Below are positions 3,395 to 9,650 of a stretch of DNA of 20,590 bases, one piece after another. Every line of letters starts with the position of its first letter. The first letter of the stretch is position 1. The translations under genes and the position numbers were made by a program. A model generated the notes under the pieces. It searched no databases. It saw nothing but the letters and a program-made list of their open reading frames with translations, and was not told where the DNA came from. Origin of the DNA: a virus; IMG/VR virus record IMGVR_UViG_3300009428_000107, positions 1 to 20,590 of that record; one strand, written 5' to 3'.

Positions 3395-4212
3395 ATCGTT
3401 CCGTAAATTGCAAACGTGCTAGTATCTTTTTCCGGTTGGTCTAGCCATGTTCTTATGTTATTAATAGCAGACCAAAACTTAGCCTCGCCTCTCTTTAGTG
3501 TTAATTCAGATGCCTTGTATACACCACAAGTGTAAGGAACAGACTTACCTTGAACCACCCAATAGAAATCATCTGTCTGCATTACCTCGCAGTATATATA
3601 TGCTTGAATATCGTAACAGAATTTATCAACATCCCACTTGAAACCATGTAGGTCTCTAGATGTTTTTGAATCTGAAACAAAACCATCACCCATTACATCA
3701 AGGAATCCTCTAACCGGAACATCTCCAATCCAATCATTAATCTCATATTGAGTCTGTCCTTTTAGATATTCTCTAACCATCCTGACTTCACCTGACTGCA
3801 TGTCTAGAACTTCAGACTCATCTAAACGAACTATCATTTTCTCAGCTTGGTTCATCATGTCTTCGTTGACGATAGTCTTCCCTTGACTAAGGCCTAGTTC
3901 TGATTCAGATGCTAACCAATCTTTATAATCCTTACATGCTCTAGGGTTTTTATATCGGTCTGATAACTCTGTTATTTTTTTCTCATCGTAAATAACATAA
4001 TACTTATCCATCAACGTCTCCGGTTCTAGAAGAAGTGTGTCATACAAGCCACCGAATGTAAATGCATCAGACTCTTTTCTAAGAAGTCCACGAACATACA
4101 ATTCAAATAACTTCATGTCTTGTTGTCTTGAGCCATCAGCGGCATACTTAAGAGCCGAGTAAGAGACATAGCCCTTACCGGTTCTCTCCATAAGTTTAGA
4201 AGCGAACTCCAT
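3391..4212 (-). CDS. RecE/exonuclease VIII-type PD-(D/E)XK exonuclease
   Basis: 273 residues. It has the motifs of the RecE C-terminal nuclease (DUF3799 type). Residues 53-64 (FGGLYDTLLLEP) correspond to the motif that normally carries a His; D172 is in RGFLDVMGDG; D181 and K183 are in VSDSKTSRD, the D-x-K core; Q203 and Y206 are in YDIQAYIY. Such enzymes digest one strand of dsDNA from an end and load a single-strand annealing protein. The ERF gene lies directly upstream with stop and start touching, giving the usual exonuclease-annealase pair. The usual motif-I His is Asp58 here, which is noteworthy. The fold assignment is strong; the alternative is a Cas4/RecB-like nuclease. Confidence 0.8.
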   Translation of the reverse strand: MEFASKLMERTGKGYVSYSALKYAADGSRQQDMKLFELYVRGLLRKESDAFTFGGLYDTLLLEPETLMDKYYVIYDEKKITELSDRYKNPRACKDYKDWLASESELGLSQGKTIVNEDMMNQAEKMIVRLDESEVLDMQSGEVRMVREYLKGQTQYEINDWIGDVPVRGFLDVMGDGFVSDSKTSRDLHGFKWDVDKFCYDIQAYIYCEVMQTDDFYWVVQGKSVPYTCGVYKASELTLKRGEAKFWSAINNIRTWLDQPEKDTSTFAIYGTI

Positions 4213-4790
4213 TACTTAACGAATTTACCTAATGCCTCTTTCTGCTTTTCTGAAAAGCCACCACCATACTTGGTTATGACTTGCTTGTAAGCAATACCCT
4301 TAGCGGATGTAGACTTAGCATTTTTAATGTAATCTACTGCTTTCTGAAAAGTGTCTGATGCGCTAGTAGGTGTAGACTTCTTGTAGTTGTTGTTAGCACC
4401 ATGGCTATTTGTAGAATCAGCATCCTTGGTGTCGTCAATTAAAAACATGCCATTGAGCGCATACTTTCTAGCATACGATGATGATGCTCCAAAACACTGA
4501 GCGATATCCATACCTTTTCTGTTCGGGTCAATACCCGCTTGGGCAGTCACTGATATTAAATCTGTACCATCCATTACCGATACATGAGATTCAATGTAAG
4601 GTATCCCACATAACTCGTGAACCTCATCTCTAATCGTCATTGATAAACCATGCTTTGATAGAAGAGGCTTTACTGCCTCAAGAATATCCTCGGCACTGCG
4701 ATAAGCATATTTACCAAATGCATTGAACTGACCTTTCGGTGCTTTTAATTCTGACTGCACTTTTATTAGTGCTTTATTAATTTTCTCCAT
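4212..4790 (-). CDS. erf: ERF family single-strand annealing protein
   Basis: 192 residues from ATG 4788-4790. The ERF core is clear: residues 24-45 (AFGKYAYRSAEDILEAVKPL) and 92-120 (KGMDIAQCFGASSSYARKYA, then LNGMFLIDD). ERF proteins anneal complementary ssDNA in recombination-dependent replication or genome circularisation. Residues 122-150 form a polar linker and the C-terminal 40 residues form a small basic helical domain. A longer frame can be read from a TTG at 4812-4814, but that codon lies inside the promoter -7 element, so ATG 4790 is the start. It is the first gene of its transcript and is followed without gap by the exonuclease. Confidence 0.88.
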   Translation of the reverse strand: MEKINKALIKVQSELKAPKGQFNAFGKYAYRSAEDILEAVKPLLSKHGLSMTIRDEVHELCGIPYIESHVSVMDGTDLISVTAQAGIDPNRKGMDIAQCFGASSSYARKYALNGMFLIDDTKDADSTNSHGANNNYKKSTPTSASDTFQKAVDYIKNAKSTSAKGIAYKQVITKYGGGFSEKQKEALGKFVK

Positions 4791-4811
4791 CACTATTGAA
4801 TTTAAGTTGAA

Positions 4812-4843
4812 CAAATATAGAAAGCTAAATCTGTATTACCAAA
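4812..4843 (-). promoter_or_regulatory. Bacteroidota-type promoter of the recombination operon
   Basis: On the minus strand a -33 TTTG (4840-4843) is followed by exactly 20 nt and then the -7 element TATATTTG (4812-4819), a full match to the Bacteroidota consensus TTTG-N19-21-TAnnTTTG. The predicted start of transcription is near 4805, giving a leader of about 15 nt before the ERF ATG at 4790. It probably drives the whole minus-strand block from ERF to the left edge. Confidence 0.8.
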
Positions 4844-5090
4844 CAAACATCAAGAAATATAAATTGAAGCTGTCTGTATTAATATATTATATATAAAGGT
4901 TTAGGGGGTTAGAATATATATATATATAATCATTGGGGGAAAAGGTGTGATTGTGATTGGTTAATATTAGTTGATAACAATGTCAATAACTCAAGACAGA
5001 TTCGTAATGCGCCTTCCAATTAGTTGCCATACATTTGAATCGTAGAAGAGGCACTCTCCCCTTTCTCTTTTACTTTCCATCTCTATCTTG
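4844..5090. other. Gene-poor AT-repeat region upstream of ERF promoter
   Basis: This gap holds an alternating AT tract (about 4914-4929) between two G-runs (GGGGG at 4903-4907 and 4935-4939) and a GATTGTGATTG element near 4949. Similar AT tracts and G-runs occur in the 11.05-11.2 kb region. An easily melted AT segment next to G-runs could be an origin or transcription-control element, but no defined iteron was found. One 29-codon minus-strand frame at 4991-5080 is listed separately. Confidence 0.4.
4991..5080 (-). CDS. 29-residue micro-protein, doubtful
   Basis: ATG 5078-5080 opens a frame encoding MESKRERGECLFYDSNVWQL and a short basic end (IGRRITNLS). It lies between the hairpin after the 127-residue gene and the ERF promoter. 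The composition is plausible for a small soluble peptide, but there is no family, no coupling and only a weak purine-rich leader (AAGATAGAG). It may be a chance frame. Confidence 0.25.
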   Translation of the reverse strand: MESKRERGECLFYDSNVWQLIGRRITNLS

Positions 5091-7460: not shown

Positions 7461-8354
7461 TTATTTAAGTTTACTTAGGTCAGTCTGCACCTTGCTTAGA
7501 ATATCCTTGCAATACTCCACTGCATTAGGTACATTCTTAAAGTGATACGTGTTTGGACATGGTATCCGCAGGGTATAGTCTGCACCGAATGTCTCAGACA
7601 TTACAGACTCCTCCACTAGGTCTCCGGCATTATGGCCGTATCCATATTGCGCCTTAGACTTTGCGCTAGAGTAGAACTCACCATTAGGATTCTCTATCAT
7701 AGCAAAGATGTTTCTTCTGAAGAAACTTGGATGCGATACCCCCCCAAGTCTTTTTGCATTGCTTGGTTCATCGTAGTCTTTGACAGATAGGAATAGTGCT
7801 AAATCACTGCTCACATCGTCATCCGCTATTGCTCCACTCATTTGATAAGATGCAGATACCTTGATTCTACTCTCCTTTTCTAGCAGTTCTGCTAACTTGT
7901 TAATCACTGCAGACTGAATGTAGAAGTTCATAGGTTTCGTATCCCATGGCGCATCACCATCGTAGACAACATGTATGCTTGGAGCAGTACCCGATGGCTT
8001 ATTTTTAAACCATTGGTCTTCATCGCCACTCATGATGGCCGCCACATCAAAGTCATGGCCCTCAATGTCCATGGATATAACGTCTTGCTTTGCCTTGAAC
8101 TCGGTCTCAAACCCTGCGAATGCAGTTTTCATTTGTTTAGGTTCGTAACCTTTCCATAGTAACTTCTTAGAGGCGTTAAGGTTTTCGCCAAACTCCATAT
8201 CACCATGGAACTGCTTTTCAAATTTCTTATTAGAAGATTTGTTCGTGCTAGGATTGTAGGTATCCATCACATCGCAGAATTCACCGAAGTTCATCGCCAC
8301 TAGGTGCGCTTTCTTCTTCTCTTTTCTTTTATTTTCTACTACTCGCTTTATCAT
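7461..8354 (-). CDS. DUF7192-like phage protein, possible VWA-like partner of the AAA+ ATPase
   Basis: 297 residues. The basic N-terminus is followed by MDIEGHDFDVAAIMSGDEDQ (residues 95-114), which resembles the D-x-x-G-x-x-x-D-V-x-x-x-x-x-G-x-x-x-x-W signature I associate with phage DUF7192 proteins. Residues 126-220 have the order of a von Willebrand A domain: strand IHVVYD, a turn DGDAPW where a MIDAS D-x-S-x-S would sit, helix AVINKLAELLEK, strand IKVSASYQM, strand DLALFLSVKD, helix. The MIDAS motif itself is absent. The gene follows the MoxR/CobS-like ATPase by 24 nt, the same order as in MoxR-VWA, NorQ-NorD and CobS-CobT pairs. The VWA reading is an inference; partnership with the ATPase is likely. 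Confidence 0.6.
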   Translation of the reverse strand: MIKRVVENKRKEKKKAHLVAMNFGEFCDVMDTYNPSTNKSSNKKFEKQFHGDMEFGENLNASKKLLWKGYEPKQMKTAFAGFETEFKAKQDVISMDIEGHDFDVAAIMSGDEDQWFKNKPSGTAPSIHVVYDGDAPWDTKPMNFYIQSAVINKLAELLEKESRIKVSASYQMSGAIADDDVSSDLALFLSVKDYDEPSNAKRLGGVSHPSFFRRNIFAMIENPNGEFYSSAKSKAQYGYGHNAGDLVEESVMSETFGADYTLRIPCPNTYHFKNVPNAVEYCKDILSKVQTDLSKLK

Positions 8355-8378
8355 GTCTCTATATTTAATGTTTAGTGA

Positions 8379-9650
8379 TTACGATAACTTAACGCCCTCA
8401 GTCATGGCGCGTTGTTGGTCAGACTTGTATTCATTAAGAATAGCGCGTTCAACGGCCACCTTAAGTTTCACTCCTCTGATGACCATCTTGTTGACTGCCT
8501 TGGTACGTCTAGGTGTAATCGTGATACCTAGATTCTTAGCATTCTTGCGTATCGCTAGTACTGCTTTAGTAGCATCGGTGTTGCCAAAGATTGCAATCTC
8601 CAATTCCTCGTCATATCCCCACTCAAACTTCTCATCAAATCTATCTAGTGTAGCCTTGTCTAGCTTGTTGCGTGATGAGTAGTCTTTGTCTGCACCATTA
8701 CCGAATGTGTTGGTACATGCTATCACCTTGAAGTCTGTATGCTTGGAGACCACCTTGTCCGGGAAAGTATACTCGTCACCACTCAGCATGTTGTTCAGAC
8801 TAACTGCTACATTGGGATTCATAGCATCAAACTCATCTAGGATAAGTAGCCCTCCATCCTCGTACATCTCACGAATAGCAGTCTTAACATATTTGCCCAT
8901 GGCATCCATGTATCCAATGCATCGCCCAAGGCTGATCTCATTAGTGAATGAGAATATTCTATAGTCTAGCCCTAGTGCCTTAGCCACTTGAACTGCTCCG
9001 TAAGTCTTACCACTACCGGCATCACCTTTGAGCAGTACATAGCTATCATCAGCTACAGACTCAAGCACATCCTTGAATAGGTAGTGCTGCATACCTAGCT
9101 TCTTTACTTCCTCTTCCTTGGGTAGCTTTACTTCAATTCTATGCACCTTTGGTATACTAGCTATACGTATCTCTTCCTTGACGATGGCAGTTACAGACTC
9201 AATGTCTACTTCACCTTTAGCGCCTTTGGTCATTAACTGCATGGCCTCCATCATTAACTGCTCTGCAGTCTTTTCTCCCTTTACTTCTTTCACTTCTTTC
9301 TTAGTTTTTGTTATTGCTACTTTTTCCTCACCAAACGCTGATACTACTTCATCGTATAGTAGACCATGCGTTAACTCATCAATGAAATACTCCGATTGAC
9401 CTTTGCCAATGTCAGTATCATGGCAGAACACATGCACTACGCCATCCTTCAGACTCACTAGTCTTCTCATGTTGTCGTGAGCATCTTCTTTGTTCAGTTT
9501 ATAAATTGCTTGTTTGAGCGATAGTTTACCGCTTTCAGTACGCAGACCGAAGTCTAGAAACAAACTCTGCGTGTTGTCTGAAACACCTAGTACTTCTGTG
9601 TTGGTTAATACTTCTGCGATTGCCCATTGATTGCTCGTAAAACGTGCCAT
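8379..9650 (-). CDS. MoxR/CobS-like AAA+ ATPase
   Basis: 423 residues. Walker A is G209-DAGSGKT-216, Walker B LLILDEFD 268-275 (D272, E273), sensor 1 N314 in IACTNTFG, arginine-finger candidate R337 in ATLDRF, and sensor 2 R381/R382 in ITPRRTKA. This set and the GYMDA/FNNMLSGDE-type pore region place it in the MoxR/CobS/NorQ branch, whose hexamers remodel partner proteins or insert metals. CobS-like genes are common in marine phages. The N-terminal 180 residues are a separate part: a folded region (1-105), then a Lys/Glu-rich linker (110-180). The adjacent gene encodes the probable partner. The target is unknown. Confidence 0.82.
   Translation of the reverse strand: MARFTSNQWAIAEVLTNTEVLGVSDNTQSLFLDFGLRTESGKLSLKQAIYKLNKEDAHDNMRRLVSLKDGVVHVFCHDTDIGKGQSEYFIDELTHGLLYDEVVSAFGEEKVAITKTKKEVKEVKGEKTAEQLMMEAMQLMTKGAKGEVDIESVTAIVKEEIRIASIPKVHRIEVKLPKEEEVKKLGMQHYLFKDVLESVADDSYVLLKGDAGSGKTYGAVQVAKALGLDYRIFSFTNEISLGRCIGYMDAMGKYVKTAIREMYEDGGLLILDEFDAMNPNVAVSLNNMLSGDEYTFPDKVVSKHTDFKVIACTNTFGNGADKDYSSRNKLDKATLDRFDEKFEWGYDEELEIAIFGNTDATKAVLAIRKNAKNLGITITPRRTKAVNKMVIRGVKLKVAVERAILNEYKSDQQRAMTEGVKLS

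What the first reader, a model, noticed from the sequence alone, without database searches (positions are those of the whole stretch)
7461..9650. Phage MoxR/CobS-like AAA+ ATPase paired with a VWA-like partner lacking a MIDAS motif
The ATPase has every AAA+ motif and its downstream partner has strand-helix order like a VWA domain but with DGDAPW in place of D-x-S-x-S. The gene order copies host MoxR-VWA chaperone and CobS-CobT chelatase pairs. Two long genes conserved as a pair in a small-gene early arm suggest a dedicated remodelling system acting on host or phage complexes. The target is unknown.
Basis: partly seen in the sequence, partly recalled or inferred. Interest (0 to 1): 0.62.

Follow-up and report, generated by a model that had tools for sequence, protein, structure and literature searches.

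The report
Phage AAA+ motor with degenerate-VWA partner
This virus carries a two-gene molecular machine, an ATP-driven ring protein plus a plug-like partner whose predicted fold resembles the adaptors of bacterial metal-insertion chaperones but has lost their usual metal-binding grip; the same gene pair occurs side by side in phages of very different bacteria, and nobody appears to have said what it does.

Summary
(1) AlphaFold2 models of two divergent DUF7192 proteins (pLDDT 86.5 and 90.0) rank the VWA domain of NorD, taken from NorQ-NorD complexes, first among solved structures by VIA-align; Rea1/Midasin-MIDAS and other VWA domains follow. (2) The pair is adjacent, same order and strand, in 50 of 50 distinct IMG/VR ATPase clusters with enough downstream sequence, and in ten named phages; the two proteins co-diverge (r = 0.78). 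The MIDAS motif is degenerate in the window (D-G-D-A-P) and in most relatives (4 of 56 keep D-x-[ST]-x-[ST]). The ATPase is not a CobS orthologue despite the 'porphyrin biosynthesis' label. Best explanation: a phage two-component remodelling motor working like NorQD, whose adaptor no longer uses a MIDAS metal to hold its target. Target unknown; interaction untested; sequence profiles alone do not detect the VWA relationship. Side finding: a cellular DUF7192-DarT1 fusion beside the same ATPase type and a NADAR antitoxin. New variant of a known kind.

The parts
8379..9650 (-). MoxR/CbbQ/NorQ-type AAA+ ATPase, 423 aa
   Evidence: AAA_5 3e-11, AAA 1e-8; phrog_249 1e-46; family-profile PDB hits Midasin, CbbQ, CobS, NorQ
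9003..9026 (-). Walker A GDAGSGKT (residues 209-216)
   Evidence: translation; G209, G212, G214 and K215 at 55-56 of 56 relatives
8880..8933 (-). region corresponding to the helix-2 insert, SLGRCIGYMDAMGKYVKT (residues 240-257)
   Evidence: G246 56/56, G252 54/56, T257 46/56; resembles the GRxLL/IxxxxT motif highlighted in the NorQ/NorD contact logos of PMC13036017; inference, ATPase not modelled
8832..8849 (-). Walker B LLILDE (residues 268-273)
   Evidence: D272 and E273 56/56
8706..8711 (-). sensor 1 N314-T315
   Evidence: 56/56
8637..8642 (-). arginine finger R337-F338
   Evidence: R337 56/56
8508..8513 (-). sensor 2 P380-R381
   Evidence: R381 56/56
7461..8354 (-). DUF7192 (PF23822) partner, 297 aa; VWA-like fold with degenerate MIDAS
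   Evidence: PF23822 48.1 bits vs cut-off 27; AlphaFold2 pLDDT 86.5; NorD VWA top solved match
7998..8081 (-). putative pore finger: strand 92-95, short helix 104-108, strand 115-119, with the conserved G99-x3-D103-V104-x5-G110 motif
   Evidence: secondary structure; G99 55/56, G110 56/56; same order ahead of the MIDAS core as the NorD finger 403-448 described in PMC13036017; inference
7947..7961 (-). degenerate MIDAS position D132-G-D-A-P136 (DxSxS in classical VWA domains)
   Evidence: family frequencies N 29, D 8 at 132 and S 33 at 136; D-x-[ST]-x-[ST] in only 4 of 56
7716..7718 (-). R213, with G110 the only fully invariant residue in 56 DUF7192 proteins

Best explanation
The two genes encode a two-component AAA+ remodelling motor that works like NorQ-NorD, CbbQ-CbbO or Rea1/Midasin. 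The ATPase forms a hexameric ring (inferred). The DUF7192 protein is a compact stand-alone VWA-like adaptor that docks on the ring and inserts the hairpin just before its beta1 strand into the pore (inferred from NorQD), so that ATP turnover pulls or twists the adaptor against a bound target. The classical MIDAS metal site, which in NorD is needed to activate the target but not to bind NorQ, has decayed, so this adaptor must hold its target by another surface, perhaps its N-terminal region or the conserved K192/R213 patch (inferred). The module sits in a replication/recombination arm, has no conserved third gene, and occurs in phages of unrelated hosts, so its target is most likely a widely conserved host complex or the phage replication machinery (inferred).
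For: Family membership of both proteins. The DUF7192 neighbour exceeds the Pfam cut-off in ten distant named phages and is next in 50/50 distinct IMG/VR ATPase clusters with sufficient downstream sequence, none upstream. ATPase and DUF7192 distance matrices correlate, r = 0.78, best of 1000 permutations 0.12. Two models: VIA-align top hits NorD VWA 9qhd_G (Z 9.8, rmsd 11.0, 190 aligned; second model Z 7.1, rmsd 8.3, 200 aligned) and 9qh6_G (Z 9.6; 7.0), with Rea1-MIDAS 6qt8 the next family (Z 7.7, rmsd 4.2, 166 aligned; Z 6.4, rmsd 5.8, 182 aligned); Foldseek top for the second model is 9qhe_G NorD, E 2.7e-3, prob 0.84, next row 0.11. Among viral models, beyond DUF7192 itself, the named hits are phage VWFA/CobT proteins, E 6e-6 to 3e-4. 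The ATPase profile independently finds the motors of those same systems: Midasin, CbbQ, CobS, NorQ. NorD MIDAS mutants still bind NorQ, and finger plus C-terminus make the contacts (PMC9976466, PMC13036017). No neighbour family recurs in more than 5 of 64 distinct loci.
Against: No sequence-level link to VWA: no VWA family appears among the Pfam matches of the 56 members up to E 1, and hhalign against phage CobT VWA gives probability about 0.1% (that profile holds only 5 sequences). NorD Z-scores are moderate with large rmsd (8-11 A), and Z under 8 is common without true kinship by the tool's own note. Interaction, hexamer formation and ATPase activity are not shown. The finger assignment rests on order of elements, not on superposed coordinates.
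Confidence: 0.72

Rival explanations
1. It is a phage CobS-CobT cobaltochelatase helper that borrows host CobN to boost cobalamin, for example for ribonucleotide reductase.
For: phrog_249 is labelled 'porphyrin biosynthesis'; cobST clusters in tailed viruses have been read this way (PMC8651126), and the Alteromonas phage R22Y gene, a member of this family, is published as cobS (PMC11705849).
Against: P0002 scores 20.2 bits against the 558.55 cut-off of the CobS equivalog; accepted phage CobS proteins also miss that cut-off but score higher, 65 and 95 bits. CobT-paired phage CobS proteins form a separate 100/100 group from all 68 other ATPases. The partner lacks the MIDAS that phage CobT proteins keep (D[WY]SGSM). 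phiM5 carries the pair with no ribonucleotide reductase annotated. CobN rings in only 5 of 14 control genomes and not in Bacillus subtilis, which is among those controls.
Confidence: 0.08
2. It is a virion-assembly chaperone, as proposed for the MoxR p618 / VWA p892 pair of Acidianus two-tailed virus.
For: Precedent of a viral MoxR-VWA pair with strong interaction and partner-enhanced ATPase activity (PMC4124505). The window also carries a GroES-like gene.
Against: The pair lies in the leftward ERF/exonuclease arm, opposite to terminase and portal, and near a genome end, away from the structural genes, in phiM5, and near the right end in Sephiroth and Tourach. In the phiM5 record neither protein carries the 'detected in phage particle proteome' note that structural proteins bear.
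Confidence: 0.1
3. It is a conflict module: the ring-plus-adaptor acts as a switch for, or inhibitor of, host defence such as ADP-ribosylating or restriction systems.
For: In an Acholeplasmatales MAG the same ATPase type precedes a DUF7192-DarT1 fusion followed by a NADAR antitoxin. McrBC uses a similar finger-in-pore arrangement without a VWA domain (PMC13036017). The module occurs in unrelated phages.
Against: One cellular fusion locus only; just two more of 160 genomes of that order have DUF7192 at all, with frames of about 300 residues. PADLOC gives no model for P0001 and only weak generic ATPase matches for P0002.
Confidence: 0.2
4. DUF7192 is not a VWA relative; the model resembles VWA only as a generic Rossmann-like alpha/beta fold.
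For: No profile-level match; PDB Foldseek E-values weak for P0001.
Against: The listed matches are mostly VWA, and the AAA+-associated ones, NorD first, lead the VIA-align tables; named viral hits just beyond DUF7192 are phage VWFA/CobT proteins; a D-x-T-x-S MIDAS-like motif survives in the phiM5-like clade exactly at the predicted site.
Confidence: 0.12

Closest known systems
NorQ-NorD (nitric oxide reductase chaperone)
   Same: Adjacent MoxR-type AAA+ and VWA-domain partner; NorD VWA is the top solved match to both DUF7192 models by VIA-align.
   Different: NorD is about 70 kDa with an extra N-terminal domain and an intact DxSxS-T-D MIDAS (PMC9976466); DUF7192 is 297 aa with a degenerate MIDAS; target unknown.
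Viral CobS-CobT clusters (cyanophages, haloarchaeal viruses, Ochrobactrum phage OC)
   Same: AAA+ ATPase of phrog_249 near a protein with a VWA domain.
   Different: CobT is about 700 aa with an intact MIDAS motif (D[WY]SGSM) and precedes cobS in the loci read here; the ATPases form a separate clade.
Rea1/Midasin MIDAS domain
   Same: AAA+ motor plus VWA plug; Midasin tops the ATPase profile search and Rea1-MIDAS is the second family in the partner's structure comparison.
   Different: One giant chain with several AAA+ modules and an intact MIDAS that binds ribosome assembly factors (established knowledge).
Acidianus two-tailed virus p618-p892
   Same: Viral MoxR ATPase with VWA partner (PMC4124505).
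   Different: Archaeal virus; linked to the virion and tail development; its VWA partner is far larger.
Pfam DUF7192 / phrog_1909
   Same: P0001 is a member above the curated cut-off.
   Different: The family has no assigned function; the window member has E instead of the conserved P112 and W instead of M115.

Membership tests
Pfam DUF7192 (PF23822) | score above the curated cut-off | tested here: met
   48.1 bits vs 27; all 56 aligned members match the family
MoxR / CbbQ-NorQ-CobS-Rea1 group of AAA+ | Walker A, Walker B, sensor 1, arginine finger, sensor 2 | tested here: met
   nearest solved relatives Midasin, CbbQ, CobS, NorQ
MoxR / CbbQ-NorQ-CobS-Rea1 group of AAA+ | beta-hairpin insert in helix 2 | tested here: inconclusive
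   conserved G246-x5-G252-x4-T257 stretch at the right place; ATPase structure not modelled
CobS equivalog (TIGR01650) | score above curated cut-off | tested here: not met
   20.2 vs 558.55 bits
VWA domain superfamily | Rossmann-like fold with VWA strand and helix order | tested here: met
   on predicted models only; NorD, Rea1, vWF A1 and integrin I matches
VWA domain superfamily | match to a VWA sequence profile | tested here: not met
   no VWA family among the matches of 56 members up to E 1
VWA domain superfamily | MIDAS DxSxS-T-D (known to be absent from some true VWA domains) | tested here: not met
   D-G-D-A-P in P0001; D-x-[ST]-x-[ST] in 4 of 56; the T and D ligands were not mapped
MoxR-VWA partner pair | conserved genetic linkage of ATPase and partner | tested here: met
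   50 of 50 clusters, 10 of 10 named phages
MoxR-VWA partner pair | finger of the VWA domain in the ATPase pore | tested here: inconclusive
   hairpin with conserved tip at the right place in sequence order; complex not modelled
MoxR-VWA partner pair | physical complex that changes ATPase activity | not testable with these tools
   needs purification and assay
CobT / NorD VWA family | profile-profile homology | tested here: inconclusive
   hhalign probability about 0.1% against a 5-sequence CobT profile

The most novel reading that the evidence does not exclude
A portable phage motor whose MIDAS-less VWA adaptor reads and switches conflict machinery: phages carry it as a solo ATPase/adaptor pair, while a cell has the same adaptor fused to DarT1 beside a NADAR antitoxin, implying that ring-driven remodelling gates a DNA ADP-ribosylating toxin and that the phage version counteracts or mimics such gating.
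Probability: 0.18. Interest if true: 0.82.

Novelty: new variant of a known kind. Interest (0 to 1): 0.56.

Why it matters
Almost 600 phage records hold an ATPase similar to this one (a count that includes cyanophage CobS), among them well-studied Staphylococcus and Listeria Herelleviridae; where the neighbour was read outside the CobS-CobT group it is DUF7192. They are annotated as 'porphyrin biosynthesis' or 'ATPase' next to a 'hypothetical protein'. Recognising the pair as a NorQD-like motor with a MIDAS-less adaptor corrects a misleading metabolic label, gives DUF7192 a testable role, and offers a small natural system for asking how AAA+/VWA motors hold targets without the MIDAS metal.

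Tried and rejected
tblastn of P0001 against 50,697 phage records and a single-protein IMG/VR scan found nothing: the family is too divergent for one-sequence searches. Alignments A1/A2 were too diverse for back-translated scans. The DUF7192 profile against PDB sequences gave only weak hits without VWA chains. hhalign with phage CobT was not significant. An IMG/VR scan for more CobT found none, and PF11775 gave no match in 99 genomes of the Spirosoma class. A conserved third gene was sought: only an SprT-like gene and a terminase-like gene, each in 5 of 64 loci. No paper in the held library mentions DUF7192. A reading of DGDAPW as a family signature was rejected: it is not kept even in L001. 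Catalytic activity of DUF7192 was considered; no evidence either way.

Full report
What is there. The window is a 20,590-base IMG/VR virus record. Its terminase has relatives in Flavobacterium, Cellulophaga and Tenacibaculum phages and uncultured phages, so the host is probably a Bacteroidota (inference). Rightward genes include endolysin, a GroES-like gene, terminase and portal. Leftward genes include an ERF annealing protein, an exonuclease VIII-like nuclease and a DnaA C-terminal domain protein. The finding's two genes lie in that leftward arm: ATPase 8379-9650 and partner 7461-8354, separated by 24 bases.

The ATPase. P0002 matches AAA_5 and AAA and phrog_249. All motor motifs are present and are invariant or nearly so in 56 relatives: G214/K215, D272/E273, N314, R337, R381. 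A profile of its family finds, among solved structures, Midasin first and then CbbQ, CobS and NorQ. It is not a CobS orthologue by the curated model: 20.2 bits against a cut-off of 558.55. In a tree, the four CobT-paired phage CobS proteins separate with 100/100 support from all 68 other ATPases; the window groups with L001.

The partner. P0001 is a member of Pfam DUF7192 and phrog_1909, both of unknown function; no paper in the library mentions DUF7192.

Linkage. In ten named phages (Staphylococcus K, Listeria P200 and LP-018, Mycobacterium Tourach, Gordonia Sephiroth, Sinorhizobium phiM5, Tunturiibacter Tunturi_4, Alteromonas R22Y, Acinetobacter Herod, crAss-like cr114_1 read with TAG=Q) the next gene after the ATPase exceeds the DUF7192 cut-off. 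Eighty IMG/VR loci fetched by the ATPase alone collapse to 55 clusters; five are cut off by contig ends and all other 50 have DUF7192 downstream on the same strand. The 1346-base gap counted for L037 is to a second, tandem DUF7192 gene; in L097, a longer piece of what appears to be the same contig, another DUF7192 gene starts 54 bases after the ATPase. The distance matrices of the two proteins correlate at r = 0.78, against at most 0.12 in 1000 permutations. Beyond the pair no neighbour family recurs in more than five of 64 loci. The exceptions to linkage are the cyanophage-type CobS proteins, which lie beside a CobT-like 'peptidase' instead; PMC8651126 states that cyanophage cobT is usually misannotated as a peptidase.

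Fold. AlphaFold2 with 56 aligned DUF7192 sequences gives P0001 a confident model (pLDDT 86.5, pTM 0.85). VIA-align ranks the NorD VWA domain from NorQD complexes first (9qhd_G Z 9.8, rmsd 11.0, 190 aligned; 9qh6_G Z 9.6, rmsd 9.4, 191 aligned), then Rea1-MIDAS (6qt8 Z 7.7, rmsd 4.2, 166 aligned), then vWF A1, TFIIH and integrin I domains near Z 6. A second model, L062 (13% identical to P0001; pLDDT 90.0), again has NorD first (Z 7.1, rmsd 8.3, 200 aligned), and Foldseek puts NorD 9qhe_G first at E 2.7e-3 with the next row at 0.11. For P0001 itself Foldseek is weak (best E 0.042, VWF A1). Against viral models, hits beyond DUF7192 include phage VWFA/CobT proteins at E 6e-6 to 3e-4. The partner and the ATPase thus point independently to the same known systems. 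Caveats: large rmsd for NorD, the modest Z of the second model, and no detectable sequence homology. The two models share most of their alignment, so they are two family members, not two fully independent predictions.

MIDAS. At the DxSxS position the window has D132-G-D-A-P136. Across 56 proteins position 132 is N in 29 and D in 8, position 136 is S in 33, and only four keep D-x-[ST]-x-[ST]; those four fall in the phiM5-like clade. The motif has therefore decayed, or was never complete, in most of the family. In NorD, MIDAS mutants T534V and D562N still bind NorQ but abolish target activation (PMC9976466), so loss of MIDAS is compatible with a working motor and predicts another target-holding surface.

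Possible finger. [quoted passage not shown]). In DUF7192 the segment just before beta1 is a strand, short helix and strand (92-95, 104-108, 115-119) carrying G99 (55/56), G110 (56/56) and P112 (54/56, E in the window). I propose this as the finger. This is inference from order; the complex was not modelled.

Mechanism proposed. Shown: conserved pair, motor motifs, predicted VWA-like fold, degenerate MIDAS, co-divergence. Inferred: hexamer, finger in pore, ATP-driven twisting or pulling, a target held without MIDAS metal, and a target among host or phage replication complexes.

Rivals. A cobaltochelatase helper is disfavoured by the CobS test, lack of MIDAS, the separate ATPase clade and absence of an annotated ribonucleotide reductase in phiM5. 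A virion chaperone like ATV p618 is disfavoured by genomic position. A conflict role is kept open by one cellular locus: L101 in an Acholeplasmatales MAG, between an RNA polymerase subunit gene and rpiB/upp-like genes, has the ATPase, a 655-residue DUF7192 protein ending in a DarT1 domain (8baq, E 6e-19), and a NADAR antitoxin (E 1.6e-65). DUF7192 is otherwise rare in cellular genomes: 3 of 160 in that order and 2 of 198 in the phylum of the Flavobacterium genome G003, counts that include the starting genomes, and 0 of 14 controls.

Verdict. The system is a new variant of the known AAA+/VWA chaperone pair, widespread in phages and unnamed; the target is the open question.

Noticed in passing
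L101:4059-8354 (JAITXT010000021.1): Chromosomal AAA+ ATPase, then a DUF7192-DarT1 fusion, then a NADAR antitoxin: a DarT1-NADAR toxin-antitoxin coupled to a MoxR-type motor. Single locus.
   Followed up: partly
L097:4083-8023 (Spirosoma sordidisoli; L037 looks like the same contig): Two tandem DUF7192 genes follow one ATPase.
   Followed up: no
window:979-1530(-): Phage protein with a DnaA C-terminal DNA-binding domain (PF08299, 3e-11) but no AAA+ part.
   Followed up: no
window:14423-14995(+): GroES/Cpn10-like co-chaperonin with an extra N-terminal half, near the terminase.
   Followed up: no
L013 (crAss-like cr114_1), 4171-5082: The DUF7192 gene reads through only with TAG recoded; the deposited annotation calls it a transcriptional regulator.
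   Followed up: no
L086:2595-3389: SprT-like gene just upstream of the ATPase in 5 of 64 loci.
   Followed up: no
L014:765-2933, L110:2474-4651, L111:1457-3622, L112:1394-3619: Cyanophage 'peptidase' genes contain a CobT-type VWA with intact DWSGSM motif and a G-[VI]-[LI]-[DN]-x4-L-x2-YK finger-like stretch before it; the peptidase label looks wrong, as PMC8651126 also says.
   Followed up: partly
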